64,000 nt of DNA, from NCBI RefSeq assembly GCF_011927785.1, contig NZ_JAATJK010000001.1, positions 2,604,001 through 2,668,000 on the forward strand, given 5' to 3'. This document shows, one piece after another, positions 4,371-60,272 of the stretch. A model generated the notes under the pieces. That model had not been told where the DNA came from, searched no databases, and saw only the letters and a program-made list of their open reading frames with translations. Position 1 is the stretch's first letter. Each line of letters opens with the position of its first letter. Both the position numbers and the translations under genes were made by a program. This stretch comes from Micromonospora profundi (GTDB lineage Bacteria; Actinomycetota; Actinomycetes; Mycobacteriales; Micromonosporaceae).

Positions 4371-7169
4371 TCAGCCGTCGATGAAGCGGTACAGCACGAA
4401 GTCCTTGTCGGCGCCGCAGGCGATCAGCCGGGTATTCCAGGAGCAGGACGCGCTGCGGACGTCCCGCAGCTCCCCCAACTCGTCGAACTCGCCCGACCCG
4501 GCCCACACGCCGGCGACGCTGCGGTTGTCCGCCACCGTGCTCGGCGCCTCGGCGAACACCAGCAGGTTGCCGGCGTCCAGCCGGGCTGCCACGCCGGGGC
4601 GGTCGCGCAGCGCCAGCGGCTTGCCGGCGGCGTCGTAGAGGGTGACGGTCGGCTTCGGATACTCCCGCTGGGTGAGCATGTGCTCGCCCAAAGGCACCAG
4701 AGCTGTGGTGCCGGGCGCCGACCAGCGGACCGCTGTCTCGCCCTCGGTGGCCGCCACCACCTCGGTGCGCTCGGCGTCGCCGCTCTGCACCTGCACCAGG
4801 CACGCCCGCCGTTCGCCGCAGGCCACCAGCCCTTTCGGCCGGTGCTGGTCGTTGTCGGCCCGGTAGAGGACCACCGGGGCGGCGTCGGAGCCCAGGTCGT
4901 ACGCAAGCAGTTGGAACCCACCCTCGTTGCCGGCCACGTAGAGCCGGTCCTCGTGCGCCACCACCAGGTCGTCGAGGTCGGCGACGTTGCCCCACTCGCG
5001 CAGCACAGCGCCGGTTGCCACGTCGAGCAGCCGCGCAGAGCGGTCCGCGCCGATCTGCACGAGCCGCCGCCCCTTGCCCGCCCACGGGTCGCGGGGCGTA
5101 CCGTCGAGGAACGCCGGGCCGCTCGCGGCCTTGTCGCTGCCCACCGGCCGGACGGCGGTGCGGAACCCGCCGCTCTGGTCCCGGGGGCTCGGCGTGTTCC
5201 ACTTCTCGGTGCCGTCGCCCATGCGCAGACCGACCAGCTGACCGGCGGTGCGGTCCACAAGCACAGCGATGTCGCCGGAGAGGTGGACGTCGTCGTCGCC
5301 TCGAATCGACCGCTGCCAGCGCTGCGCGCCCGAGCTGCCGTCGAGGACCGCCACCGCACCAGGGGTGCTACCCGAGCCGTCGGCGAGAACCGCTACCGCC
5401 CCCGGGACGGCGACCAGCCCCGTCCACCTGTCGGCGGTGAGGTTCGTCGGTTTGCGCCACAGCTGGTCGCCTGTGCCGGCGTCGACCGCGACCACCTCCA
5501 GCCGGTTGTCCGGCAGCGGGTAGCCGAGGTAGGCGCGGTCGTCGAGCACCGCCGTCCACATTCCGCGCGGCCGCTCGGCGCCGGCCTGGTGCCTCGCCAG
5601 CTCACGCAGCGACCCGAACTCCAGGTCCGGGTAGCGGTCTCGGGTCAGGTAGAGGGTCGCCGCGGTGACCACGCCGGCCAGGGCGAGCACCGCGCCGAGC
5701 GCCACCCAGCGCACCCGACGCCAGGACGACCGGGGGGTCGAGGGAGGCGGCGGCGTTCCGGCGTTCCCACCGACAAGGGTCCGGGGCAGGCCCGCCGGCC
5801 CGGGCACGGTCGGCCCCGCGTGCGGCGGCCACCCCGGCGGCCCGGTCTGTGACGGCACGGTGTGCGCCGTGGGCCCGGGCGATGACGGCACGGTCGGCGC
5901 GGTGGGCGCGGGCGACGACGGCATGGTCGACGCGGGCGACGACGGCACCGGCGGCGGGCCGATCGGTGGCGGCACGGGAGATACCGGCGGGGCGACGGGT
6001 GCTCCCGCGTACGCCGGCGTCGGCAACTGTCGACGCAGCGGCAGATCCGTCAGCGCGCCCTCGGCCACCGGTAGCTCCGGCTGGTCCAGCACCGTCGGCG
6101 CCACTCCCAACTCGGCGTGCAGCATGCGGGCCACCAGCGGGATCCGCGACGAGCCGCCGACGAGGAACAGCCCGGCGAGTTGGTCGGGGCTGAGCCCGGC
6201 GGCGGCGATGACCTCCCGGGCACGGTCCACCGCGCGTTGCAGCAGCGGCGCGGCCGCCCGCTCGACGTCCGCCCGGGTCAGCTGCACCGCCTCGGGCACC
6301 CCAGGTACCGCGACCGGCGCCACTGTGGACCGCGACAACGTCTCCTTCGCGCCCCGGACCTCGTCCCACAGTCGGACCTGGTCACGGCGCTGCGCCGGGT
6401 CCGACGGCCCGACCAGCCGGGCCCACTGCGCGGCGTGCCGCTCGCCGAGCAGCTCACCGACCCGCCGCATCAGCGCCGCGTCGAGATCCAGGCCACCGAG
6501 GTCGGGCAGGCCGCCGTCGGCCACCACGCTGAACCCCGAGTCGCCCCACGGGTCGGCGCCCTCGTTGCGCAGCACCGCCACGTCGAGTGTCCCGCCACCG
6601 AAGTCGAACACCGCGATGGCGCCGCCGACCGGCACCGGCCGGTGCAGCACCTGCGTGTAGTAGCGAGCGGCGGCCACCGGCTCACGCAGCAGCCGCGTGC
6701 CCGGAGGCGTCGGCCCGGCGAGGGTGTGCTCGGCGGCTGGTGGCCAGCCGGCCTGCAACAGCGCGTCGGCGAGGACCTGCCGCCGCGTCGCGTCCCAGGC
6801 CGCCGGGAAGGTGAGCACCGCCGGAGGCAGGAAGCCCACCGTGTTGACGGCGGCCCGCCCGACGGCAGCCAGCACCGCGGCGAGCAGGTCGGCCGGGCGG
6901 TACGAGCGGTCACCGAGCACCACCGCCGGCTCGTCCACCCGGCGCTTCGGGTTCGGCTCGAACCGGGCCGGGTCGGCCTGCGCCAACCGTCGGGCGTCCC
7001 AGCCGGCGTGCAGGGTGCCGTCCGGGTCGGCGTACACGCCGGACGGGCTGACCGGCTGCCCGTCCATCAGCAGTGGCCGGGTCCGCCCGTCCGGCCAGCG
7101 CAGCACCGCGACCGTGTTGGAGGTGCCGAGGTCGACGCCGAGGGCGAAACCGTCGTGCTGGCCTGCCAT
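4371..7169 (-). CDS. Membrane-anchored Hsp70-type ATPase fused to a PQQ-like beta-propeller
   Basis: A 932-aa three-part protein. Residues 1 to about 380 are an actin/Hsp70 ATPase: LGVDLGTSNTVAVL (phosphate 1), VFDFGGGTLDVAVL (phosphate 2) and LFLVGGSSRIPLV (adenosine). The Hsp70 peptide-binding domain is missing. A Pro/Ser/Thr-rich linker (about 400-480) leads to one transmembrane helix (about 487-508). About 420 residues of WD/PQQ-like repeats follow (for example GTGDQLWRKP and DGSSGAQRW), expected outside the cell. The ATG at 7169 is preferred over an upstream frame extension; GGAGG lies about 14 nt before it. Function is unknown; the layout suggests that outside ligand status is coupled to a cytoplasmic nucleotide switch. 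Confidence 0.85.
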   Translation of the reverse strand: MAGQHDGFALGVDLGTSNTVAVLRWPDGRTRPLLMDGQPVSPSGVYADPDGTLHAGWDARRLAQADPARFEPNPKRRVDEPAVVLGDRSYRPADLLAAVLAAVGRAAVNTVGFLPPAVLTFPAAWDATRRQVLADALLQAGWPPAAEHTLAGPTPPGTRLLREPVAAARYYTQVLHRPVPVGGAIAVFDFGGGTLDVAVLRNEGADPWGDSGFSVVADGGLPDLGGLDLDAALMRRVGELLGERHAAQWARLVGPSDPAQRRDQVRLWDEVRGAKETLSRSTVAPVAVPGVPEAVQLTRADVERAAAPLLQRAVDRAREVIAAAGLSPDQLAGLFLVGGSSRIPLVARMLHAELGVAPTVLDQPELPVAEGALTDLPLRRQLPTPAYAGAPVAPPVSPVPPPIGPPPVPSSPASTMPSSPAPTAPTVPSSPGPTAHTVPSQTGPPGWPPHAGPTVPGPAGLPRTLVGGNAGTPPPPSTPRSSWRRVRWVALGAVLALAGVVTAATLYLTRDRYPDLEFGSLRELARHQAGAERPRGMWTAVLDDRAYLGYPLPDNRLEVVAVDAGTGDQLWRKPTNLTADRWTGLVAVPGAVAVLADGSGSTPGAVAVLDGSSGAQRWQRSIRGDDDVHLSGDIAVLVDRTAGQLVGLRMGDGTEKWNTPSPRDQSGGFRTAVRPVGSDKAASGPAFLDGTPRDPWAGKGRRLVQIGADRSARLLDVATGAVLREWGNVADLDDLVVAHEDRLYVAGNEGGFQLLAYDLGSDAAPVVLYRADNDQHRPKGLVACGERRACLVQVQSGDAERTEVVAATEGETAVRWSAPGTTALVPLGEHMLTQREYPKPTVTLYDAAGKPLALRDRPGVAARLDAGNLLVFAEAPSTVADNRSVAGVWAGSGEFDELGELRDVRSASCSWNTRLIACGADKDFVLYRFIDG

Positions 7170-7394: not shown

Positions 7395-8108
7395 TCAGCC
7401 GTCGGTGTCGGCGCAGCGGTCGGAGAGGGCGTAGCGCAGCAGCACCACGTCGCCGATCTGGCGGGTCTCGGCCAGCCGGGCGCGACGGCCCGGGTGCCAG
7501 GGGAAACGTCCCTCACCGACGAACCGGGGCGCCCGGCCGTCACCGACGAAGAACGGGGCGACCACCAGGTGCAGCTCGTCGGCGAGGCCGGCGGTGAGGA
7601 ACTGGGCGTGCACAGTCCCGCCGCCCTCCACCATCAGCCGCCGTACGCCCCTGTCGGCAAGGTCGGCAAGGACCCAGGCCGGGTCGACCGGCTCGTTCGC
7701 GTCCACCACTGTCGCCAGCCGGCCGAGGCGTTCCCGCGCCTTCTCCACCGCGCCGGTGGCGCAGTAGACGAGCCGGGCCGAATCGCCTGCGGTGAAGAAC
7801 CGGGAGGTCGGGTCGAGGTCCCCCCGGGCGGTCAGCGTCACCTTCGTCGGCGAGGCGGGCCGGCCACACGCCACGCGCTCGGCGCGACGTGCCGCGGAGC
7901 GCACCAGCAGGCGGGGATCGTCGCGGCGGACCGTGGCGGCGCCGACCAGGATCGCGTCACAGGAGGCACGGACGGCGTCGACACGGTCCAGGTCGTCGTC
8001 GTTGGACAGCATGAGCCGCTGTTCGGAGGCGTCGTCGATGTAGCCGTCGATGGAGGTGGCGCAGCTCAGCAGCACGTACGGCCGCGGTGGCGCCGGCCGG
8101 CAGCTCAC
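7395..8108 (-). CDS. RibD C-terminal-type pyrimidine/DHFR-fold reductase
   Basis: A 237-aa protein equivalent to the reductase half of RibD; the deaminase half is absent. It begins PYVLLSCATSIDGYID, has the substrate/NADPH region ILVGAATVRRDDPRLLVR, and the MVEGGGTVHAQFL motif typical of 5-amino-6-ribosylamino-uracil 5'-phosphate reductases. NADPH reduction of a ribosylated pyrimidine would follow the GTP cyclohydrolase II product, and that enzyme's gene overlaps this one by 4 bp (GTGA, GTG start at 8108). It is the last gene of the seven-gene minus-strand run. Because no riboflavin synthase or lumazine synthase is nearby, a role outside riboflavin is possible. Confidence 0.85.
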   Translation of the reverse strand: MSCRPAPPRPYVLLSCATSIDGYIDDASEQRLMLSNDDDLDRVDAVRASCDAILVGAATVRRDDPRLLVRSAARRAERVACGRPASPTKVTLTARGDLDPTSRFFTAGDSARLVYCATGAVEKARERLGRLATVVDANEPVDPAWVLADLADRGVRRLMVEGGGTVHAQFLTAGLADELHLVVAPFFVGDGRAPRFVGEGRFPWHPGRRARLAETRQIGDVVLLRYALSDRCADTDG

Positions 8109-8797
8109 CGGGAGACGGGCCGGTCAGGGGTCAGGACCGCCTCGGACCCGGCTGCTTCCGCCGCCTCGATCTCGGCCGCCTTCGCCGCCTTCGCCGCCAG
8201 GTATTCGGCGTTTGCCGGGGACAGGAAAACGCTCGTGGGGACACGTTCGGTGACCGCCACGCCCAGCCGGGTCAACTGCTCGGCCTTGTCGGGGTTGTTG
8301 CTGAGCAGCCGGACGCGCGGTACGCCGAGGGTGGCGAGCATCTGCGCGGCCGCGCTGTAGTCACGTTCGTCCTCGCCACGGCCGAGCGCGACGTTCGCCT
8401 GGTAGGTGTCCAACCCGGCGTCCTGAAGGGCGTACGCGTCGAGCTTGGCGTACAGGCCGATACCCCGGCCCTCCTGACGCATGTACAGCAGGAACCCGCC
8501 GGTCTCGGCGATCCGCTGCACCGCCTCGCGCAACTGCGGCCCGCAGTCGCAGCGCTGGCTGCCGAACACGTCGCCGGTCAGGCACTCGCTGTGCGGGCGG
8601 ACCAGCGGCGGCTCACCACCGGCGGCGAGCCGGTCCAGCGCGCCGGCCCAGTCACCGACGCCGAGGGCGAGATGTTCCCGGCCGTCGACCAGGCCCTTGA
8701 ACGAGAACACGCGGACCGTCGTGGCGTAGCCGTCAGGGAACGCCAGAGGCACCGTGACCTGGGTACGGATCGTGGCGACCGGCAGTGCTTCGGGCAT
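8105..8797 (-). CDS. ribA: GTP cyclohydrolase II
   Basis: A 230-aa stand-alone GCHII with no DHBP synthase half. It should open the GTP imidazole ring, releasing formate and pyrophosphate and giving 2,5-diamino-6-ribosylamino-pyrimidinone 5'-phosphate. The zinc cysteines are in SECLTGDVFGSQRCDCG; the RQEGRGIGL loop and NNPDKAEQL block are intact. The Tyr in KLDAYALQD aligns with E. coli Tyr105, which I recall as separating canonical enzymes from a formamidopyrimidine-forming paralogue, so canonical chemistry is expected. The ATG at 8797 has an AAAGGAG box. The C-terminal tail is Ala/Glu-rich. It is the sixth gene of the cluster and no FMN riboswitch is seen. Confidence 0.92.
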   Translation of the reverse strand: MPEALPVATIRTQVTVPLAFPDGYATTVRVFSFKGLVDGREHLALGVGDWAGALDRLAAGGEPPLVRPHSECLTGDVFGSQRCDCGPQLREAVQRIAETGGFLLYMRQEGRGIGLYAKLDAYALQDAGLDTYQANVALGRGEDERDYSAAAQMLATLGVPRVRLLSNNPDKAEQLTRLGVAVTERVPTSVFLSPANAEYLAAKAAKAAEIEAAEAAGSEAVLTPDRPVSR

Positions 8798-8855
8798 GGG
8801 ACTCCTTTGTCCGGCGTCACCGTCACGCGGCGACGGGTACCGTCTCACCACCTGT

Positions 8856-9794
8856 TCAACAGCCGTCACTGGTGACGACTTCCCGTGCGGTGGTGGGCTT
8901 GCGGGCACGGCGGGCAAGCAGAACGGCGGCGCCGGGCAGGCTGGCCACCAGGACGAGGGCACCGTAGACGGTGGCGGTCGCGACGCCCTCGGCGGCGCTG
9001 AGACCTGCCGCGCCGAACACCCAGGCAGCCACCCCCTCGCGCGGGCCGAAACCGGCGACGTTCAACGGCAGACCCATGGCGAGCAGGGCCAGCAGGGTCA
9101 GCGGCAGCAGCCGTGACAGGGAGGCGTCCGAGCCGGCGGTACGTGCCGCCACCAGGAACGTCGCCAGGTGGCCGGCGACCATGACGGCGGAGGCGACAAG
9201 CACACCGAGCCAGGTCCGCCGGGACAGGAGCCCGGACCGCACGTCAGCGACGGCAGTGCGCAAACCCCGTGCCCACCGCGAGCCGCCGGTCCGGGGCAGG
9301 ACCCGAGCCAGCAGCACGGCGGCCAACCCGGCGGTCAGCAACACCGCGGCGGCGACCGGCAGGTACTGCCGCACCGGCGACGGGAACGCCGCAAGCACCA
9401 CGAGCGCGACGCCCACAAGCACCACCTGGCCGGCGGCACGTTCCCAGACCACAGCGCGGATGCCCCGGCTCACGTCGCCGGCGTCGCGCCCGTGGCGCAC
9501 CGCGCGGTGGACGTCGCCGAGCACACCGCCGGGCAGCGTCGCGTTGAGGAACACCGCCCGGTAGCAGTGCGCGACAGCGGTCGCCAGCGGCAGCCGCACA
9601 CCGAGGCCACCCGCGACGAGACTCCACCGCCATGCCGCGCAGACCGTCGTGAGGACGCCGATGAGCAGTGCCGCGGTCAGCGCCGGCGCGTCGATCAGCC
9701 GCACCCCGGCCAGGAACGGACCGCCGCCCACCTGCCACAGCAGGACGGCGAGCAGACCCACCCCGCCGACCACTCGTGCCCAGGCCCACACCAT
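8856..9794 (-). CDS. UPF0104/LPG-synthase-TM family membrane protein (flippase-like)
   Basis: A polytopic protein of about 312 aa with some eight hydrophobic segments, belonging to the lysylphosphatidylglycerol synthetase transmembrane (UPF0104) family. It has FLNATLPGGVLGDVHRAVR and the late motif LPLNVAGFGPREG, which are conserved there. It lacks the cytosolic aminoacyl-transferase domain of MprF, leaving only the flippase-like part; relatives move or handle glycolipids. The ATG at 9794 follows AGGAAGGA; an upstream GTG at 9881 has no such box and would overlap the methyltransferase gene. In this cluster it is a good candidate for carrying a lipid-linked or glycosylated product across the membrane. 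Confidence 0.8.
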   Translation of the reverse strand: MVWAWARVVGGVGLLAVLLWQVGGGPFLAGVRLIDAPALTAALLIGVLTTVCAAWRWSLVAGGLGVRLPLATAVAHCYRAVFLNATLPGGVLGDVHRAVRHGRDAGDVSRGIRAVVWERAAGQVVLVGVALVVLAAFPSPVRQYLPVAAAVLLTAGLAAVLLARVLPRTGGSRWARGLRTAVADVRSGLLSRRTWLGVLVASAVMVAGHLATFLVAARTAGSDASLSRLLPLTLLALLAMGLPLNVAGFGPREGVAAWVFGAAGLSAAEGVATATVYGALVLVASLPGAAVLLARRARKPTTAREVVTSDGC

Positions 9795-9858
9795 CGGCGC
9801 CGGTCCTTCCTGAAGATCGTCCACTTGCCCTAGTGCACGTACCCAGGGTGTCGACGGT

Positions 9859-10674
9859 TCATCCGCCCGCGAGGAGATCACAGTGCTCGACCAGCACGTC
9901 GAGCCTGCCGGCGGCCGCGTCGGCCAGCCGGCGTTGGGCGTACGCCTGCGTCGGGCCGACCAGGTCGGGGCGCTGCTCGCAGGCGGCGCCCAGCCAGCCG
10001 CGGAACCATTCGGCGGTCAGGTCGGCCTGCTCCGGGCCGAGCCGCCACGGGCTGGGCCGCTCCCGCACGGTCACGCCCCGCCTGGTGAACGCGGCGACCG
10101 TGGCCGCGGCGGCGTCCGGGCCGAGCAGCCGCCGGCCGTCGACGGTACGCCGCTGGTGCTCGTTGAACGCGTCCTGGACGACGGTGTCCAGCGGGTCGGT
10201 CGGTGTGAACCGAACCAGCCCGGTCACCGAGACCGCGAACAGGGCCGGGCGGCCGACGCAGGCGTCCACCACCCGGTCGACCTCGTCTGCGGTCAGCATG
10301 TCCAGCAGCGCGGAGGCGGTGATCAACGCGGCGTCGGCCAGGTCGGTGGTGGTGAGCCGGGTGAGGTCGCCGCAGCGGGTGTCCACTGTGACCGGTGCGC
10401 CGTCGGCGGCGCTCACCCCGACCATGCCCTCGGCGGCGCGGGCCAGCAGGTCCGGGTCGCGGTCGTGCAGGATCCAGTGCTGCGGGCCTGGCAGTCGGGC
10501 GGCCAGCCAGCGGCTCATCGAGCCGGTGCCGCTGCCCAGGTCGTGGATGAGCGTCGGGGTGCCGCCGGTCAGCCGGGGCCGGACGGCGTCCACCAGGTCC
10601 TCGGCGCGGGCTGCCGCGTCGGCCGGCTCGCGCAGGCGCAGCCAGTCGGCGAACGGCAGGGTCTCGGCGGTCAC
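9859..10674 (-). CDS. SAM-dependent methyltransferase (class I)
   Basis: A 271-aa Rossmann-fold methyltransferase. The SAM motif I is IHDLGSGTGSMSRWLA, followed by the acidic strand end WILHDRDPDLL; a later block ALITASALLDML holds the post-I region. The GTG start at 10674 overlaps the glycosyltransferase stop by 4 bp (GTGA), so the two are translationally coupled. The substrate is unknown. Its place between a glycosyltransferase and a flippase-like protein suggests it methylates a sugar or pterin/pyrimidine-type intermediate of the cluster. No membrane segment is seen, so it is cytoplasmic. Confidence 0.8.
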   Translation of the reverse strand: MTAETLPFADWLRLREPADAAARAEDLVDAVRPRLTGGTPTLIHDLGSGTGSMSRWLAARLPGPQHWILHDRDPDLLARAAEGMVGVSAADGAPVTVDTRCGDLTRLTTTDLADAALITASALLDMLTADEVDRVVDACVGRPALFAVSVTGLVRFTPTDPLDTVVQDAFNEHQRRTVDGRRLLGPDAAAATVAAFTRRGVTVRERPSPWRLGPEQADLTAEWFRGWLGAACEQRPDLVGPTQAYAQRRLADAAAGRLDVLVEHCDLLAGG

Positions 10675-11777
10675 TCCGCCACCTCCTCGAGCACTGCGGC
10701 CAGGCGCGCGGTGGTCACCGGCCAGTCGGAAAGGGTGTCGCGCCGGGCGAGCGCGGCGTGCCGCAGCCGGTCCCGCAGCGGTCCGTCGTCCAGCCACCGC
10801 GTCAGCGCGCCGGCCAGCGCGACCGGGTCGTCCGGCGGCACCAGCATTCCGGGCCGGATGCCGTCGGGGGCGTGACCGAGCGCCTCCGGCAGGCCACCGA
10901 CGTCGGTGCCGAGCACCGGCAGGCCGCGCGCCAGTGCCTCGGTGACGACCATGCCGTACGTCTCCCCGCGCGACGGCAGCACCAGCAGGTCTGCGGCGGC
11001 GTACGCGGCGTCCAGCGCCACCGAGGTCAGCGGACCGGCCAGCCGGACCCGGTCGTCGAGGTCGGCCGCCGCGAGCCGCTCCCGCAGCAGGCGTACCAGG
11101 TCAGGCTCCCGGGTCAGCGTGCCGGCACAGACAAGTGTCCAGCGTCGTCCGGCGATCGTGGTCAGGGCGTCGACAAGCACGTCGTGCCCCTTGTGGTGGG
11201 TGACGGCCGCCACGCAGAGCAGCCGGTCCCCGCTCGGCGAGCCGGTCGCCACCGGCGCGGGTGTCACCCCCGGCGGGGCGACACGGACCCGGTCGGCGGG
11301 CAGGCGGTGACGGGTCAGCAGCCGGCGCCGGGTCCACTCGCTTGTGGTGACCACCGCGCGGGCGGTGGCCAGCGCGCGGGCCTCGGCCTCGTCGTCAAGC
11401 GGCATGTGCACAAGGACGACAAGGCGCAGTCGTCGGGTGTGCGGGGCGAGCAGGTCCGGCACTGCCGAGGCGATCAGACCGTCGAGCAGCACCACTGCGT
11501 CGTCCGGCGTATCGACGAGCAGCCGGGCCAGCGCCGTACGGGCTCCCGCGTCGGGATTCGGCCACTCCCCCGGCACCGGGTGCTCGCGCACCGACCAGCC
11601 GTGCTCGTCGAGCCCCGCGCAGATCCGCCTGTCGTAGGAGTTGCCACCACTGGGCGTGGCCGGGTCGTCGATGTCGCCGGGCAGCACGACGTGCACCACC
11701 CGGCGGCGCTCATCCAGGGCTGGTGCGGAGTCGGCGGCGGGCCGGTCGTGCGACGCCGCCCGGCCCGCACCGATCAC
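10671..11777 (-). CDS. GT-B glycosyltransferase (family 4-like)
   Basis: A 368-aa retaining GT-B enzyme. The C-terminal nucleotide-sugar domain is clear: [17 protein letters not shown], then [15 protein letters not shown], which holds the E-x7-E signature, and [15 protein letters not shown]. The N-terminal acceptor domain starts [13 protein letters not shown]. It should transfer a sugar from a nucleotide donor in the cytoplasm; donor and acceptor are not predictable. The GTG at 11777 overlaps the PTPS-like gene stop by 4 bp, and its own stop overlaps the methyltransferase start, placing it in the middle of the coupled run. Confidence 0.88.
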
Positions 11778-12178
11778 AGTGACCGCTCGTAGCTGGCCCA
11801 GGCGACGTGTGACTCGTGCAGGGTGACGGTGATGCCGACCAGCGCACGTGCCCCTTCCCCCAGCGCGCCTGCGTGCACCCGCTCGGCCAGCCGGTCGGCG
11901 ACGGTACGCGCCAGCACCTCCGTGGTGGTGTTCACCCCGGCGAACGCGGGCTCGTCGTCGAGGTTGCGGTAGGACAGCTCACCGACCACCTCCCGCAACT
12001 GCTCGGTGGCCAGGCCGATGTCGACCACGATGCCGTCGGCGTCCAGGTCGGGCCGGCGGAACGTCGCGTCCACCACGAACGTCGCGCCGTGCAGGCGCTG
12101 GGCCGGGCCGAACACCTCGCCCCGGAAACTGTGGGCGATCATCATGTGATCCCGAACGGTAACGCTGAACACTGTCAC
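11774..12178 (-). CDS. 6-pyruvoyl-tetrahydropterin synthase/QueD-like protein with altered active site
   Basis: A 134-aa T-fold protein of PTPS/QueD length. The fold signature is visible: [47 protein letters not shown], and the terminal [14 protein letters not shown] with the pterin-anchoring Glu. Three catalytic features are changed. The zinc pair HxH is HxA (LHGATF), the nucleophile Cys before it is absent, and the LDH motif reads LDD. It probably binds a pterin- or pyrimidine-like ring but should not do standard PTPS or QueD chemistry. The GTG at 12178 and its stop both form 4-bp overlaps with the neighbours, so it is tightly coupled to the dehydrogenase and glycosyltransferase genes. Confidence 0.82.
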
Positions 12179-13158
12179 TCCCCGTCGTCGTAGGTGATGA
12201 GATGGCACAGCGCGGGCAACTCGCCAGTGCTCAGGCGGGCGAGCACGTCGGGCAGCTCCGCGAACCGGGACGCGCCGGTGATCAGCGCGTCGAAGGCAGG
12301 GTCGTCGAGCAGGTCCAGGGCCAGGGCCAGCCGGTCGGCGTAGCTGCGGCGACCCCGCCGCGCGGGTGCCACCATGCCGACCTGGCTGCTGCGTACGGTA
12401 AGCCGTCCGGAGTGGAACGCCCCGCCCAGCGACACCTGCACCGGGCGGTCCCCGTACCAGCTCAGCTCCACCACGGTGCCCTCCGGGGCGAGCAGGTCAA
12501 GCGAGCGTTGCAGCCCGGCGGCGGTGGCGCTGGCGTGCACCACCAGGTCCCGGTCACCGGCCGCGTCGTCCGGCCTGGCGAACCCGACGCCGAGCGCCCC
12601 GGCCACCCCGGCCCGCCGGGCGTCGGTGTCGACGAGTTCGACGTGCACCCCGGGGAACCGGGCCAGCAGCGCCGCGACGCAGCAGCCCACCATGCCCGCG
12701 CCGATCACCGTGACCCGGTCGCCTACCAGCGGCGCGGCGTCCCACAGCGCGTTCACAGCGGTCTCCACGGTGCCGGCGAGCACCGCGCGGGCCGGCGGCA
12801 CGTCGTCCGGCACCGGCACCACTGCGCTGGCCGGCACGACGTACGCGCTCTGGTGCGGGTGCAGGCAGAAGACGGTACGCCCGAGCAGCTCCGGCGGGCC
12901 CTGCTCGACAACGCCCACGTTGAGATAGCCGTACTTCACCGGGCCGGGGAAGTCGCCCTCCTGGAACGGGGCGCGCATCGAGGCGTACTGGTCGGGGGGC
13001 ACCCGGCCGGCGAAGACAAGCGTCTCGGTGCCCCGGCTGACGCCGGAGTAACGGGCCCGTACCAGCACCTCGTCGGGGCCCGGTTCGGGCAGCGACAGCG
13101 GCCGGATCTCCGCCACGCCGGGCTCGCGCACCCAGCAGGCGTACGCCTCGCGGATCAC
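12175..13158 (-). CDS. MDR-superfamily dehydrogenase without the catalytic-zinc Cys
   Basis: A protein of about 327 aa of the medium-chain dehydrogenase family. The GroES-like half has [13 protein letters not shown] where zinc enzymes have a GxCGTD-type Cys, so the catalytic zinc ligand is missing. The Rossmann half has [17 protein letters not shown] for NAD(P). Related sequences include BchC-like oxidoreductases, which share the SxGTE block. It should oxidise or reduce an alcohol/ketone or enone. GTG 13158 is chosen for its GAGG box 9 nt upstream; GTG 13173 is an alternative. It is the first gene of the seven-gene run and is divergent from the CDP-alcohol phosphatidyltransferase gene, with 93 bp between. 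Confidence 0.8.
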
Positions 13159-13251
13159 CGTCGCGCACCTCACCTTCGCTCTGGACCGAACCGAACGGCC
13201 GTGTTTTCCGTGTTCCCTGTCGGGGTCGTCGATCATAAACACGGAGGTACG

Positions 13252-14178
13252 GTGCCCACAGTTCGAAGCGGTCCGGTGATCGGGCTCACCGCCCAACTGG
13301 TCGTGCTCGCAGCACTCGCCGCCACAGTGGGTCTGACCGGGGCCGGTTGGCTGGCCGGGTTGGGCTACGCGGCGGTCACCTGTCTCGCCCTGAGCCGGGG
13401 TCTGCGCCGGTCCGGCGCGTCAGGTCTCGGCCCGGCCGACCGGGTGACGCTGACCCGGGCCGTCCTGGTCGGCGCCGTCACCGCGCTGGTGGTGGACTCG
13501 TTCGACCGGCCCACGCCGGTGGGGCTGCTGGTCACTGTGACGGCGGTGGCCCTGCTGCTGGACGCGGTGGACGGCCAGGTCGCGCGGCGCACCGGCACGG
13601 TGAGCGCGTTGGGTGCGCGCTTCGACATGGAGGTCGACGCGTTCCTCATCCTGGTGCTCAGCGTGTACGTCGCCCCGGCCGCCGGTAGTTGGGTGTTGGC
13701 CATCGGCCTGATGCGGTACGTGTTCGTCGCGGCGAGCGCGGTGCTGCCCTGGCTGGGTGGGTCGCTGCCGCCGCGCCTCTGGCGCAAGGTGGTGGCCGCC
13801 GCGCAGGGGGTGCTGTTGGCGGTCGCCGCCGCGGAGGTGCTGCCGCGGTCGTGGACCACGCTTGTGCTGGTGGCGGCGCTGGCGCTGCTGATCGAGTCGT
13901 TCGGCAGGGACGTGGCCTGGCTGTGGCGACGCCGCCCGACGTCCCGCCGTCAGCCGGCGGCACGTCCCCGGGTCGCTGTGGCGCCGGCTCCCGCGCCGGC
14001 CGCGCGGCTGGTCACCGGTCGGGCCGGGGCCACGCCGCTGGCCCGTGCGCCCGGTCACACTCCGGTGGCGCTGCCGCTGACCGACGGGCAGACGCCTGTC
14101 ATCGTGCCGCCGCTGCTGCCCGTACCCGCGATGGCCACCCTCTCGGGCGCCACGGTCCCCGCACACTGGACGCGATGA
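13252..14178 (+). CDS. CDP-alcohol phosphatidyltransferase with cytoplasmic Pro/Ala-rich tail
   Basis: A 308-aa polytopic enzyme. The catalytic signature D-x2-DG-x2-AR-x8-G-x3-D-x3-D is complete (DAVDGQVARRTG, then GARFDMEVD), so it should join an alcohol to a CDP-activated lipid or sugar-alcohol in the membrane. Several hydrophobic segments surround it. The last 90 or so residues are Pro/Ala/Val-rich and not part of the family core. The GTG at 13252 has GGAGG only 4 nt before it. The stop overlaps the next gene's start (ATGA). Divergent orientation with the dehydrogenase run suggests shared control and a shared envelope product. Confidence 0.87.
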   Translation: MPTVRSGPVIGLTAQLVVLAALAATVGLTGAGWLAGLGYAAVTCLALSRGLRRSGASGLGPADRVTLTRAVLVGAVTALVVDSFDRPTPVGLLVTVTAVALLLDAVDGQVARRTGTVSALGARFDMEVDAFLILVLSVYVAPAAGSWVLAIGLMRYVFVAASAVLPWLGGSLPPRLWRKVVAAAQGVLLAVAAAEVLPRSWTTLVLVAALALLIESFGRDVAWLWRRRPTSRRQPAARPRVAVAPAPAPAARLVTGRAGATPLARAPGHTPVALPLTDGQTPVIVPPLLPVPAMATLSGATVPAHWTR

Positions 14179-15923
14179 TGCGCCTTCCCGACCGGCTGCG
14201 CCGGCTGACCGTCCCGCCGCGTCCGCGCCCCGCGCGCACCGGCGACGACTCCCCGCGTACCCCAGAAGTGCCGGCCGGGTCCGACGGCCGTCGCGGCCGG
14301 ACGCGGCGGGCGCTCGGCGCGGCGGTCGCGGTTCTGCTTGTGTACGGCGTGCTTGTCGGCCCGGACCGGCTCAGTGAGCTGACTCCCGGCGCGTTCGTCC
14401 GCATCCCGCTGGAGGGGCTGCTCCTCGCCGCGCTTCTGCTGGCGCTGCCGACGCGGCCCCGGCGGGCGGTGGTGGCCGTGGTCGGGCCGGTGCTCGGCCT
14501 GCTGGCCGTCGTGAAGCTGGCCGACCTGGGCTTCCGCACGGCCCTCGACCGGCCGTTCGACCTGGTGCTGGACTGGCTGCTGCTCGATGACGCGTTCGGT
14601 TTCGTCAGGGACTCGGCCGGCCGGGCCGGCGCCCTCGGCGCGGCGGTCGGCGTCGTGCTGGTGATCGTCGTGCTGGTGCTTGTGGTGACAGTGGCGCTGC
14701 GGCGGTTCGCGGCGCTGCTGGTGGGTCACGAGCGGGCGGCGACGCGGGTGGTGGCGGCCTTCACCGTCGCATGGGTGGCGTGCGCCGTGGTCGAGGTGCG
14801 GATCGTGCCCGGCGTGCCGGTGGCCGACGCCGGGGCCACCGCGCTCGTCGGCGCGCACGCCCGCCAGGTGGACGACCGGCTGCGCGACAGTGGGCGGTTC
14901 ACCGCGAAGATCGGCAGCGACCCGTTCCGGGATGTCCCGGGTGAGCAGTTGCTGACCGGGCTGCGCGGCAAGGACGTCGTCCTCGCGTTCGTGGAGAGCT
15001 ACGGTCGTGACGCGGTGGAGAACCCGGAGTTGGCGCCGCAGGTCAACGCGGTCCTGGACGCCGGGACCGAGGCGCTACGCGCGGCCGGGTACGGCAGCCG
15101 CAGCGGCTTCCTCACCTCCCCCACGTTCGGCGGCGGCAGCTGGTTGGCGCACGACACACTGCTGTCCGGGCTGTGGACGGACAACGAGCAGCGGCACCGC
15201 GCCCTGCTGGCCAGTGACCGGCTGACCCTCAACGGCGCGTTCCGCAGGGCTGGCTGGCAGACCGTCGGGGTGCTGCCGGCAGCCACCCAGCCGTGGCCGG
15301 AGCAGGGCTTCTTCTCCTACGATCGCTACTTCGACGCCGAGGCGCTCGGCTACCGGGGCCCGAATTTCAGTTACGCCCCGATGCCCGACCAGTACACGCT
15401 GTCGTTCTTCCAGCGGCAGGTCCGGGCGGCGGCGGACCGCCCGATCATGGCGCAGATCCCGCTGATCTCCAGCCACTCGCCGTGGACGGCGGTGCCTCAG
15501 ATGATCGGCTGGGACCAGGTGGGCGACGGCTCCGTCTACCACAATGACGCCGCCGCGGCCGACGACGGCGAGACCGACGACCGGGACACCGGGCGGGCTC
15601 GCGCCGGCTACCGGCAGGCGATCGCCTACTCGCTTCAGACGCTGATCTCCTACGTGCAGACGTACGGGGACGACGACTTGGTGCTTGTGTTTCTCGGTGA
15701 CCACCAGCCCTCCCCGGTGGTCACCGGCGAGGGCGCGAGCCGGGACGTGCCGATCACCATCGTCGCCCGGGATCGGGCCGTGCTGGACCGGGTGGCGGGC
15801 TGGGAGTGGCAGGACGGGTTACGGCCCGGCCCGCAGGCTCCGGTGTGGCCGATGGACACCTTCCGCGACCGTTTCCTGACCACGTTCGGGACCTCGCCGC
15901 CGCCGCTCGCCGCGCCGCGCTGA
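14175..15923 (+). CDS. Membrane sulfatase/LtaS-like alkaline-phosphatase-superfamily enzyme
   Basis: A 582-aa protein. After a basic N-terminus, four or five hydrophobic segments (about residues 45-200) lead to an extracellular sulfatase-fold domain. The metal site begins VVLAFVESYGRDA; the block FGGGSWLAHDTLLSG holds the likely nucleophile Ser/Thr region; VFLGDHQPSP supplies the late Asp-His metal ligands. In related LtaS or OpgB-type enzymes this fold transfers or removes phosphoglycerol-like groups, or cleaves sulfate. It is coupled to the CDP-alcohol phosphatidyltransferase by an ATGA overlap at 14175, so a role in making or trimming a phospho-alcohol polymer or headgroup is likely. A second ATG lies at 14178. 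Confidence 0.85.
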   Translation: MMRLPDRLRRLTVPPRPRPARTGDDSPRTPEVPAGSDGRRGRTRRALGAAVAVLLVYGVLVGPDRLSELTPGAFVRIPLEGLLLAALLLALPTRPRRAVVAVVGPVLGLLAVVKLADLGFRTALDRPFDLVLDWLLLDDAFGFVRDSAGRAGALGAAVGVVLVIVVLVLVVTVALRRFAALLVGHERAATRVVAAFTVAWVACAVVEVRIVPGVPVADAGATALVGAHARQVDDRLRDSGRFTAKIGSDPFRDVPGEQLLTGLRGKDVVLAFVESYGRDAVENPELAPQVNAVLDAGTEALRAAGYGSRSGFLTSPTFGGGSWLAHDTLLSGLWTDNEQRHRALLASDRLTLNGAFRRAGWQTVGVLPAATQPWPEQGFFSYDRYFDAEALGYRGPNFSYAPMPDQYTLSFFQRQVRAAADRPIMAQIPLISSHSPWTAVPQMIGWDQVGDGSVYHNDAAAADDGETDDRDTGRARAGYRQAIAYSLQTLISYVQTYGDDDLVLVFLGDHQPSPVVTGEGASRDVPITIVARDRAVLDRVAGWEWQDGLRPGPQAPVWPMDTFRDRFLTTFGTSPPPLAAPR

Positions 15924-16054: not shown

Positions 16055-16957
16055 GTGACCAGCACGTCGGATGGGCAGTGTCCGGACCCGGCCGTCGAGG
16101 CGTTCGTCGACCACCGCAACCTGCTCTTCACTGTGGCGTACGAGATGCTCGGCTCGGCCGCCGACGCCGAGGACGTCCTCCAGGAGACGTGGCTGCGGTG
16201 GGCGGACGTCGACCTTTCCACTGTGCGGGACCGGCGCGCCTACCTCGTCCGGATCACCACGCGTCAGTCGCTCAACCGGCTGCGGACCCTCGGCCGGCGC
16301 CGGGAGTCCTACGTCGGCTCGTGGCTTCCCGAGCCACTGCTGACAGCGCCCGACGTCGCCGAGGACGTCGAGTTGGCCGAGAGCGTCTCGATGGCGATGC
16401 TGCTGGTGCTGGAGACGCTCGGCCCCACCGAGCGGGCCGTGTTCCTCCTGCGCACGGTGTTCGACCTGGCCTATGACGAGATCGCCGAAGCCGTCGACAG
16501 GAGTCCGGCGGCGGTCCGTCAGATCGCGCACCGGGCGCAGGCACATGTCGCGGCGCGTCGGCCGCGCGGGATCGTTTCCCGGGCCGAGGCCCGACAGGCG
16601 GTCGAGGCGTTCCGCCGGGCGGTCGAGACCGGTGACCTGCAGGGGCTGCTCGACATCCTCGCACCGGACGTCGTGCTGATCGGCGACGGTGGTGGGATCC
16701 GGCAGGCGATCCCGCGGCCGATCACCGGAGCCGTCAAGGTGGCCCGCCTGCTGACCGCGAGGCCGGACCTGGTCGCCGACCTGTCGGCGGAGCCGGTCGA
16801 GGCCAACGGCTATCCGGCGTTGGTTCTGCGACTCGACGGCGAGATCGACGCGGTCGTCGCGCTGCGCATCGACGACGGGCTCATCACCGAGCTGTACGCC
16901 GTGCGCAATCCGGAGAAGCTCTCGCACATGCGGCAGGAGACCGCCCTGCGCCGCTGA
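16055..16957 (+). CDS. ECF41-group sigma factor (SigJ-like) with SnoaL-like C-terminal domain
   Basis: A 300-aa extracytoplasmic-function sigma factor. Region 2 is near FTVAYEMLGSAADAEDVLQE and region 4 near AVFLLRTVFDLAYDEIAEAV. Between them is the WLPEP motif (YVGSWLPEPLL), and after region 4 an NTF2/SnoaL-like domain begins (EAFRRAVETGDLQGL) with a DGGG block (LIGDGGGIRQA). Both motifs mark ECF41, where the C-terminal domain takes the place of an anti-sigma factor. The GTG at 16055 has AGGAG 7 nt upstream. The usual ECF41 partner gene (carboxymuconolactone decarboxylase, oxidoreductase or epimerase) is not adjacent, so its target and signal are open. Confidence 0.92.
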   Translation: MTSTSDGQCPDPAVEAFVDHRNLLFTVAYEMLGSAADAEDVLQETWLRWADVDLSTVRDRRAYLVRITTRQSLNRLRTLGRRRESYVGSWLPEPLLTAPDVAEDVELAESVSMAMLLVLETLGPTERAVFLLRTVFDLAYDEIAEAVDRSPAAVRQIAHRAQAHVAARRPRGIVSRAEARQAVEAFRRAVETGDLQGLLDILAPDVVLIGDGGGIRQAIPRPITGAVKVARLLTARPDLVADLSAEPVEANGYPALVLRLDGEIDAVVALRIDDGLITELYAVRNPEKLSHMRQETALRR

Positions 16958-59717: not shown

Positions 59718-60272
59718 TCAGGCGGCAGTCCCCGGTCGGTACGTGGCGATGATGACGCCGCTCCTGTGCACCCGGGTGCCGATCAGCTCGAAGGACACCG
59801 GGACGTCCTTCAGTGGGGCGGTGAGGCTGGCGCCTCCCTGGAGCACCGGGCAGATCCAGAACCGGACCTCGTCCACCAGCCCTGCGTGGACCAGCTGCGC
59901 GGTGACCGAGCCGTAGCCGTACTGGATGATGTCGCCCCCGTCCTGGGCCTTGAGCCGGGTGACCTCCTGCACCAGATCACCCTGGAGCACCTCCGTGTTG
60001 TTCCAGGTGGGGTTGGTGAGGGTGGTCGAGGCGACGTACTTCTTGACGTTGTTGAAGTAGGCGGCACCCGTGCTCGGGTCGCTCTCGTCCCGCTGCGGCC
60101 AGGCGGCGGACATGCCGTCGTAGGTGACCCGGCCCATCAGCATCGCGTCGGCCTCGTCCGTCTGCGAACCGGCGAAGGCGGCGGCCTCCTCGTCGAAGTA
60201 CGGCATGGTCCACGTCGGGTTCTCGATGACGCCGTCGAGGGTGATGTAGGTCGAGTTGATGAGTTTGCGCAT
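59718..60272 (-). CDS. Dihydrofolate-reductase-family (RibD C-terminal fold) protein
   Basis: A 184-aa single-domain protein of the YyaP/YwjB-type DHFR-like group. It opens MRKLINSTYITLDGVIENP, has the NADPH-binding ADAMLMGRVTYDGMSAAWP and DIIQYGYGSVTAQLVHAGLV, and ends VRFWICPVLQGG plus a short tail. It should be an NADPH reductase of unknown substrate in the cytoplasm. It converges on the AfsR-type gene with only 8 bp between the stops. The ATG at 60272 has a GGAGA box. Confidence 0.88.
   Translation of the reverse strand: MRKLINSTYITLDGVIENPTWTMPYFDEEAAAFAGSQTDEADAMLMGRVTYDGMSAAWPQRDESDPSTGAAYFNNVKKYVASTTLTNPTWNNTEVLQGDLVQEVTRLKAQDGGDIIQYGYGSVTAQLVHAGLVDEVRFWICPVLQGGASLTAPLKDVPVSFELIGTRVHRSGVIIATYRPGTAA

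What the first reader, a model, noticed from the sequence alone, without database searches (positions are those of the whole stretch)
7395..15923. Nine-gene coupled locus: GTP cyclohydrolase II and an altered PTPS with glycosyl-, methyl- and phospho-alcohol transferases
Seen: seven minus-strand genes, most joined by 4-bp GTGA overlaps, encode dehydrogenase, PTPS-like protein, glycosyltransferase, methyltransferase, flippase-like protein, GCHII and RibD-type reductase. Opposite them a CDP-alcohol phosphatidyltransferase and a sulfatase/LtaS-like enzyme are coupled by ATGA. Known: GCHII plus a RibD reductase gives a ribitylated diaminopyrimidine; PTPS-fold proteins act on GTP-derived rings; the last two families build phospho-alcohol lipids or polymers. 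Inference: the locus makes a glycosylated, methylated GTP-derived compound that is lipid-linked or exported. No riboflavin, folate or queuosine gene is present to explain it.
Basis: partly seen in the sequence, partly recalled or inferred. Interest (0 to 1): 0.85.

Follow-up and report, generated by a model that had tools for sequence, protein, structure and literature searches.

The report
Conserved GTP-derived metabolite pathway in actinobacteria
The nine neighbouring genes are real and most of them stay together across many actinobacteria, where they probably open the ring of GTP and turn it into a sugar-decorated, methylated, perhaps exported compound that has not been identified; two of the proteins have been studied singly but have had no pathway.

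Summary
The nine genes are present as described. The genome is nearest to Micromonospora, and the locus is the counterpart of Streptomyces coelicolor SCO6650-SCO6655.

In 52 unnamed loci with enough flank, the dehydrogenase, PTPS-like and glycosyltransferase genes are together in 52, UPF0104 and CDP-alcohol transferase in 46 each, methyltransferase in 44, GTP cyclohydrolase II (GCHII) in 43, the sulfatase in only 16.

New here: the GTP-opening step comes as two modules. Either GCHII keeps the tyrosine aligned with E. coli Tyr105 and travels with a RibD_C reductase (as in the window), or that residue is Met/His/Leu/Gln/Cys and a creatininase-family hydrolase stands beside it (71 of 72 distinct loci, against 0 of 38 with Tyr). 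This fits a GCHII that stops at the formylated intermediate (recalled for SCO6655) and a separate deformylase. It rests on about three evolutionary changes.

A family outside the class keeps reductase-dehydrogenase-PTPS-glycosyltransferase-methyltransferase in one order (17 loci). I propose that reductase, dehydrogenase and PTPS-like protein make a pterin, then sugar and methyl are added. That ring closure is inference; the product is unknown.

The parts
7395..8108 (-). RED: RibD_C reductase, like 2,5-diamino-6-ribosylamino-pyrimidinone phosphate reductases, no deaminase domain found
   Evidence: PF01872 151.8 bits; solved relatives 5xux 110 bits and 6p8c 91 bits; archaeal model TIGR01508 129 bits (cut-off 186) against 91 for eubacterial RibD
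8105..8797 (-). GTP cyclohydrolase II, Tyr type (Tyr aligned with E. coli Tyr105)
   Evidence: PF00925 191 bits; NF001591 250 bits over cut-off 148; alignment with 2bz0; residue
8856..9794 (-). UPF0104/LPG_synthase_TM integral membrane protein, putative flippase or exporter; an upstream GTG at 9881 is possible
   Evidence: PF03706 98 bits; kept in 46 of 52 unnamed loci
9859..10674 (-). MT: class I SAM methyltransferase, counterpart of SCO6652 by position
   Evidence: PF13649 29 bits; model pLDDT 93, best Foldseek matches are class I methyltransferases
10671..11777 (-). GT: GT4-type glycosyltransferase with an EX7E motif (in [13 protein letters not shown]; motif recalled)
   Evidence: solved relatives at 62 bits or less, among them MshA/PimA-type enzymes; fused to a methyltransferase-like domain in L163
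11774..12172 (-). PTPS-like T-fold protein, SCO6650 ortholog; catalytic-Cys and third zinc-His positions are Ala, two His and the ring-anchoring Glu kept
   Evidence: PDB 3D7J 233 bits; residue counts in 138 rows
12175..13158 (-). DH: MDR dehydrogenase without the usual zinc ligands ([15 protein letters not shown]); start GTG 13158 uncertain
13252..14178 (+). CDP-alcohol phosphatidyltransferase-like, active-site motif DAVDGQVARRTGTVSALGARFDMEVD intact
   Evidence: PF01066 47.3 bits; kept in 46 of 52; motif read, its meaning recalled
14175..15923 (+). Sulfatase/LtaS-like membrane phosphotransferase or phosphatase, optional part
   Evidence: PF00884 40.7 bits; present in only 16 of 52 and 20 of 66 loci

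Best explanation
The locus is a conserved biosynthetic pathway. Step 1: GCHII opens GTP to 2,5-diamino-6-ribosylamino-4(3H)-pyrimidinone 5'-phosphate (APy). In other genomes the same step is split: a non-Tyr GCHII stops at the formylated intermediate (FAPy) and a creatininase-family hydrolase removes the formyl group. Step 2: the RibD_C reductase reduces the ribosyl to a ribityl chain. Step 3 (least certain): the zinc-free dehydrogenase oxidises the 2'-hydroxyl, and the PTPS-like T-fold protein, which keeps the ring-anchoring Glu but not the PTPS catalytic Cys, holds the pyrimidine while its 5-amino group closes on that ketone, giving a 7,8-dihydroneopterin-phosphate-type pterin; reduction then oxidation would be a formal Amadori rearrangement done without GTP cyclohydrolase I. 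Step 4: the GT4 enzyme and the methyltransferase decorate it. Step 5: UPF0104 and the CDP-alcohol transferase move it across, or tie it to, the membrane. Gene retention is shown; all enzyme steps are inferred. My odds: one shared pathway 0.9; APy entry 0.85; ribityl 0.65; pterin closure 0.3; sugar plus methyl 0.7; membrane link or export 0.4.
For: Gene retention: DH+PTPS+GT together in 52 of 52 unnamed and 65 of 66 named loci with at least 5.5 kb of flank; with UPF0104 and CDP-alcohol transferase in 45 of 52 and 59 of 66. The set recurs at 31-56% identity in L163. GCHII and reductase in one open frame in L077, L090, L161, L163, L164 imply consecutive steps. Tyr versus non-Tyr GCHII goes with absence or presence of the creatininase gene in 109 of 110 distinct loci; the exception, L148, has that gene 14 kb from its PTPS gene. 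A creatininase-annotated protein, Sm-BrbF, is a proven FAPy deformylase (PMC9478397, abstract and passages). PTPS-like: Glu120, Glu85, Asp51, Asp72, His14, His28 in 138 of 138 rows; Cys position Ala in 137, third His position Ala in 136. Dehydrogenase model nearest to iditol/xylitol/idonate dehydrogenases. In family f53, FolB faces RED-DH-PTPS-GT-MT in 17 of 17 fetched loci (GT in 16, MT in 15, the rest cut by contig ends); L184 has GCHII just before RED. SCO6652 transcript log2 0.8, 4.3, 4.1 at 24, 48, 72 h, about 20-fold up in aerial and spore stages (PMC3610822).
Against: 56 of 72 distinct non-Tyr loci have no reductase gene; searched with one Streptomyces reductase, the genomes of this kind gave only 44-62-bit matches or none at 1e-10. 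So a dedicated reduction is not universal and the reduce-oxidise scheme does not explain them. Of 11 genomes with no GCHII at the locus, 7 have a single GCHII in the whole genome. The Tyr/creatininase link is only 3 changes on the best tree and 1 well-supported independent pair. The creatininase protein scores best, below cut-off, with MftE (142.7 bits) and poorly with archaeal ArfB (39 bits). Micromonospora has a 62% identical copy elsewhere. FolB next to f53 loci is the only FolB in each of the 6 f53 genomes searched, so probably housekeeping. 16 of 17 f53 loci show no GCHII. MDR fold matches differ by only about 2 Z between polyol and general alcohol dehydrogenases.
Confidence: 0.55

Rival explanations
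1. Open-ring product: the ribitylated (or ribosylated) diaminopyrimidine is never closed to a pterin; glycosyl- and methyltransferase act on the pyrimidine or its chain, as in plant vicine-type pyrimidine glucosides. The PTPS-like protein is a binding or isomerising protein.
For: The PTPS-like protein of the class lacks the PTPS catalytic Cys and a zinc His, SCO6650 is reported to lack zinc and PTPS activity (recalled), and nothing at the locus is a known pterin-ring former. Vicine from a GCHII product is recalled.
Against: An oxidoreductase plus a T-fold protein in every unnamed locus with enough flank (52 of 52) suggests chain or ring chemistry; the f53 versions keep all three His (17 of 17).
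Confidence: 0.28
2. Envelope glycolipid locus: glycosyltransferase, UPF0104, CDP-alcohol transferase and sulfatase-like enzyme make a phospho-glycolipid, and the GTP-derived part is only a headgroup or side branch.
For: CDP-alcohol transferase kept in 46 of 52 with an intact motif in the window and placed on one strand between DH and GCHII in 19 loci; UPF0104 in 46 of 52; GT relatives include MshA/PimA-type enzymes.
Against: f53 loci and L158-L160, L162 keep DH-PTPS-GT with no match to this CDP-alcohol transferase or UPF0104; flanks of L160 and L162 are short, and L162 has a different, PgsA-like one nearby, read by eye. Sulfatase in 16 of 52.
Confidence: 0.12
3. Backup riboflavin or folate supply: GCHII and reductase are paralogs that boost flavin or folate precursors and their neighbours are incidental.
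For: GCHII and RibD_C are riboflavin enzymes; S. coelicolor has several GCHII (PMC2853524 lists SCO6655 and SCO2687).
Against: The genome has a separate GCHII, RibD_C, two GCHI and FolB; none of the nine window genes matches lumazine or riboflavin synthase; the core DH-PTPS-GT set is kept even where GCHII is absent.
Confidence: 0.05
4. The creatininase-family protein is an MftE-like peptidase or another amidohydrolase, so the two-module reading is wrong and non-Tyr GCHII simply feeds FAPy into a different product.
For: Best NCBIfam score is MftE, 142.7 bits against a cut-off of 172; most non-Tyr loci lack the reductase (56 of 72), so their product could differ.
Against: Core enzymes are the same families, about 40-80% identical to the window's, in non-Tyr loci; Sm-BrbF, also creatininase-annotated, deformylates FAPy (PMC9478397); in the window's genome a close homolog sits in a run with GTP cyclohydrolase I, a CxxxHGH-type PTPS and a QueE-like protein.
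Confidence: 0.15

Closest known systems
Streptomyces coelicolor SCO6650 (PTPS homolog, PDB 3D7J) and SCO6655 (GCHII)
   Same: Window PTPS-like is its ortholog (233 bits). Gene order in the S. tendae locus L064 (PTPS, GT, MT, UPF0104, creatininase, GCHII) matches six consecutive numbers 6650-6655; S. coelicolor itself was not fetched.
   Different: SCO6655 makes FAPy because of Met at the switch position (recalled from Spoonamore et al. 2006, not held); the window enzyme has Tyr and no creatininase neighbour but has a reductase. No product was assigned (recalled).
Archaeal and rhizobial early riboflavin steps (GCHIII + ArfB; BrbF)
   Same: GTP opening and deformylation split between two proteins, the second creatininase-annotated in Sinorhizobium (PMC9478397, passages).
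   Different: Here the first enzyme is a GCHII with a changed residue, and the pathway leads away from riboflavin; ArfB model score is only 39 bits.
PTPS / QueD (COG0720) families
   Same: T-fold; a His pair and the Glu that holds the pterin are kept (Glu role recalled).
   Different: No catalytic Cys, none of the published motifs CxxxHGH, CxxxxxHGH or ExxHGH (motifs from PMC5041015 passages); QueD model 37.5 bits against a cut-off of 89.
Other GCHII-started pathways: toxoflavin, vicine, chlamydial RibA+TrpF folate bypass (all recalled)
   Same: Divert the GCHII product from riboflavin; the chlamydial one makes a pterin.
   Different: None combines a PTPS-like protein, MDR dehydrogenase, GT4, UPF0104 and CDP-alcohol transferase, as far as I recall.

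Membership tests
GTP cyclohydrolase II (RibA) | Family profile and zinc-cysteine region | tested here: met
   PF00925 191 bits, NF001591 over cut-off; HSECLTGDVFGSQRCDCG in the alignment with the E. coli enzyme 2bz0. TIGR00505 score 187.6 is under its 205.85 cut-off.
GTP cyclohydrolase II (RibA) | Tyr aligned with E. coli Tyr105, needed for deformylation (role recalled) | tested here: met
   KLDAYALQD against KIRAYALQD, chain residue 105 by the numbering
GTP cyclohydrolase II (RibA) | Converts GTP to APy | not testable with these tools
   needs enzyme assay
6-pyruvoyltetrahydropterin synthase / QueD | Catalytic Cys | tested here: not met
   Ala in 137 of 138 rows; also Ala in 17 of 17 f53 proteins
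6-pyruvoyltetrahydropterin synthase / QueD | Three zinc His | tested here: not met
   first and second His in 138 of 138, third is Ala in 136 of 138; all three kept in 17 of 17 f53 relatives
SCO6650-type PTPS-like proteins | Orthology by sequence and gene neighbourhood | tested here: met
2,5-diamino-6-ribosylamino-pyrimidinone 5'-phosphate reductase (archaeal type) | NCBIfam TIGR01508 cut-off | tested here: not met
   129.4 of 186.45 bits; 6p8c, so named, is among the best solved relatives
Creatininase-family FAPy deformylase (BrbF/ArfB), for the neighbour in other genomes | Family fold/profile | tested here: met
   PF02633 225.8 bits for the L064 protein; creatininase PDB chains
Creatininase-family FAPy deformylase (BrbF/ArfB), for the neighbour in other genomes | ArfB equivalog cut-off | tested here: not met
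   39 of 180 bits; MftE 142.7 of 172, also not met
Creatininase-family FAPy deformylase (BrbF/ArfB), for the neighbour in other genomes | Close similarity to Sm-BrbF itself | not tested
   BrbF sequence not fetched
CDP-alcohol phosphotransferase | DxxDGxxARx8GxxxDxxxD motif (recalled) | tested here: met
   DAVDGQVARRTGTVSALGARFDMEVD in the translation; PF01066 over cut-off
Zinc-dependent MDR polyol dehydrogenase | Catalytic zinc ligands (Cys, GHE; recalled) | tested here: not met
   S[GA][VI]SxGTE in 123 of 138 dehydrogenases and PVK[YF]GYL in 118 of 138; the other 15 and 20 did not match the search patterns
LtaS/sulfatase-type phosphotransferase | Family profile | tested here: met
   PF00884 40.7 bits, cut-off 25; no solved relative by sequence at E 1

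The most novel reading that the evidence does not exclude
A route to pterins that does not use GTP cyclohydrolase I: GCHII opens GTP, a ribosyl reductase and a zinc-free polyol-type dehydrogenase carry out a formal Amadori rearrangement by reduction and oxidation, a cysteine-less T-fold protein closes the ring, and the pterin is glycosylated, methylated and joined through its phosphate to lipid by the CDP-alcohol transferase: a membrane-bound pterin made in aerial hyphae and spores.
Probability: 0.1. Interest if true: 0.85.

Novelty: new variant of a known kind. Interest (0 to 1): 0.62.

Why it matters
The roles of SCO6655 and SCO6650 have been unexplained (recalled; neither original paper is held). 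Placing them in one conserved pathway, and explaining a GCHII that stops half-way by a deformylase gene next door, makes both testable with two enzyme assays and one deletion. If a pterin or pyrimidine glycoside is made during sporulation of many soil actinomycetes, it is a widespread metabolite missed so far. It also warns that GCHII or PTPS annotation here should not be read as riboflavin, biopterin or queuosine synthesis.

Tried and rejected
Riboflavin backup: rejected, the genome has another GCHII and RibD_C elsewhere. PTPS or QueD function: rejected on residues. Flanks: HSP70-like 4371-7169 matches in only 1 of 52 and 2 of 66 loci; the sigma-factor query was a wrong reading frame and was dropped, so that flank is untested. 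FolB as a pathway member in f53: weakened, it is the only FolB in the 6 f53 genomes searched. A dedicated reductase elsewhere in reductase-less genomes: only 44-62-bit matches or none at 1e-10, with one Streptomyces reductase as query. GCHII elsewhere where the locus has none: of 11 such genomes, 4 have a second GCHII match and 7 only one; creatininase elsewhere. Fold search of the methyltransferase gave only general class I enzymes. Of the 90 of 396 phylum matches I fetched 22 regions; L176-L179 show CxxxHGH, the QueD motif, and are not this family; the rest were not looked at. Literature: searches found no paper on the pathway or on SCO6650/SCO6655 biochemistry; only open-licence PMC papers are searchable, so this is no proof of absence. 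The tree gave only 3 changes, so 109 of 110 is not 110 independent points. The gene caller mis-called some antisense frames (for example window 12202-14178), so counts rest on tblastn. The 110 distinct loci leave out loci with no GCHII found, three identical duplicates, and L164 (too divergent for the core tree; Tyr, fused reductase, no creatininase). Some loci of the two samples are the same genome (for example L069/L116), so the 52 and 66 are not fully separate.
Full report
What is there. Seven run on the minus strand in the order dehydrogenase (DH), PTPS-like, glycosyltransferase (GT), methyltransferase (MT), UPF0104-like, GTP cyclohydrolase II (GCHII), RibD_C reductase (RED); two run the other way, CDP-alcohol transferase and a sulfatase/LtaS-like protein. 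Three of six minus-strand junctions and the plus-strand one are 4-bp overlaps. The window is part of a 6.93-Mb, one-contig genome whose best named matches are Micromonospora.

It is conserved. The PTPS-like protein was matched in 65 of 393 genomes drawn from the class, 24 of 122 genera; the weakest match (G071, E 1e-4, region L165) shows nothing else of the set. After setting aside 6 and 14 regions with under 5.5 kb of flank or no PTPS match, presence was, of 52 (and of 66 named): DH, PTPS, GT together 52 (65); UPF0104 46 (65); CDP-alcohol transferase 46 (61); MT 44 (62); GCHII 43 (60); creatininase 30 (38); RED 21 (35); sulfatase 16 (20). The regions were picked by the PTPS gene, so its own count is by construction, and some named and unnamed loci are the same genome. 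L163, at 31-56% identity to the window's proteins, still has DH, PTPS, a GT fused to an MT-like domain (23.6 bits, under Pfam's 27), UPF0104 and, facing them, GCHII and RED in one frame and the CDP-alcohol transferase. In 19 loci the order DH, CDP-alcohol transferase, GCHII is on one strand; in 93 of 139 the CDP-alcohol transferase faces away next to DH as in the window.

Two ways to open GTP. E. coli GCHII Tyr105 aligns with the Y of KLDAYALQD in the window (numbering). Across 110 distinct loci with a readable GCHII the residue is Met 50, Tyr 38, His 12, Leu 7, Gln 2, Cys 1. A creatininase-family gene (PF02633, 225.8 bits for L064) lies at the locus in 71 of 72 non-Tyr and 0 of 38 Tyr loci; the missing one (L148) has it 14 kb from its PTPS gene. 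From memory (Spoonamore et al. 2006, not held), SCO6655 with Met here stops at the formylated FAPy and Tyr restores the full reaction. A creatininase-annotated Sinorhizobium protein, Sm-BrbF, deformylates FAPy to APy (PMC9478397, abstract and passages). So one gene set starts with GCHII(Tyr), the other with GCHII(non-Tyr) plus a deformylase, and both probably deliver APy. In the GCHII tree the Tyr type of this locus (100/100) and one fusion type (100/100) stand apart, and the non-Tyr type is one group with moderate support (89/84); this suggests separate recruitments. Caution: only 3 changes on the core tree, one well supported. Both kinds occur within Pseudonocardia. The best-fitting NCBIfam model of the creatininase protein is MftE, below its cut-off, and Micromonospora carries a 62% identical copy elsewhere, in a run with GTP cyclohydrolase I, a CxxxHGH-type PTPS and a QueE-like protein (QueE by eye).

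Reduction. RED scores 129 bits with the archaeal reductase model against 91 with eubacterial RibD, and its best solved relatives are 5xux (listed as 'Conserved protein'; archaeal origin recalled) and 6p8c, a 2,5-diamino-6-ribosylamino-4(3H)-pyrimidinone 5'-phosphate reductase; such enzymes act before deamination (recalled). RED is at 37 of 38 distinct Tyr loci (missing in L062), in one frame with GCHII in five loci, but at only 16 of 72 non-Tyr loci; genomes without it at the locus have only 44-62-bit matches or none. This is the main hole in any single scheme. Seven of 11 genomes with no GCHII at the locus have just one GCHII in all.

The PTPS-like protein. In 138 rows (three of them from duplicate loci): His14, His28, Asp51, Asp72, Glu85, Glu120 in all; the catalytic-Cys position is Ala in 137; the third zinc-His position Ala in 136. 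So it is not PTPS, QueD or the folate type by the published motifs (PMC5041015, passages) but keeps what would hold a 2-amino-4-oxo-pyrimidine ring. The 3D7J structure paper is known to me only from memory: no zinc, no PTPS activity.

A deeper branch. A profile search over the phylum matched 90 of 396 genomes at 1e-6. I fetched 22 regions. L176-L179 have the QueD motif. Of 24 matched genomes in family f53 I fetched 17: in all 17 FolB faces RED-DH-PTPS-GT-MT in that order (GT in 16, MT in 15; missing at contig ends), with all three His kept and the Cys position Ala; L184 also has GCHII between FolB and RED. In L172 and L173 GT and MT are one frame. The f53 methyltransferase is not recognisably the window's family (no tblastn match at 1e-5). 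FolB there is the only copy in each of 6 f53 genomes searched. G418, of another family outside the class, has GCHII, RED, UPF0104, GT and part of PTPS on a 3.8-kb contig (L171).

When it may act. In S. coelicolor, SCO6652, the MT by position (SCO6650 PTPS, SCO6655 GCHII; order read in S. tendae L064), is raised log2 0.8, 4.3, 4.1 at 24, 48 and 72 h, so in the aerial and spore stages (PMC3610822, Table 3 passage). SCO6655 is listed among genes mostly raised in stationary phase (PMC2853524, passage).

Verdict. Observation confirmed. One conserved GTP-derived pathway is well supported; its product is unknown. Parts were known singly; I found no description of the whole (searches named under Tried and rejected, open-licence papers only). 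On checking, I lowered the ribityl odds from 0.70 to 0.65 because.

Noticed in passing
L205 (own genome C1 3,388,001-3,403,000): Minus-strand run: XRE-type regulator, creatininase-family protein 62% identical to the Streptomyces locus one, NUDIX, second GTP cyclohydrolase I, PTPS with the QueD motif CxxxHGH, QueE-like protein (regulator, NUDIX and QueE named by eye). Looks like a 7-deazaguanine pathway; the creatininase gene sits near a GTP cyclohydrolase here too.
   Followed up: partly
window 4371-7169 (-): HSP70 domain joined to a PQQ/BamB-like repeat domain in one 932-aa protein (PF00012 and PF13360).
   Followed up: no
window 16055-16957 (+): ECF-type sigma factor with a weak SnoaL-like C-terminal match, just downstream of the sulfatase gene.
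   Followed up: no
window 17056-19761 (+): Long secreted-looking protein with repeated modules and a C-terminal LPVTG-type sorting signal (read by eye).
   Followed up: no
window 59757-60266 (-): A further RibD_C-family match; the genome has 14 RibD_C matches in all.
   Followed up: no
   Followed up: partly
   Followed up: no
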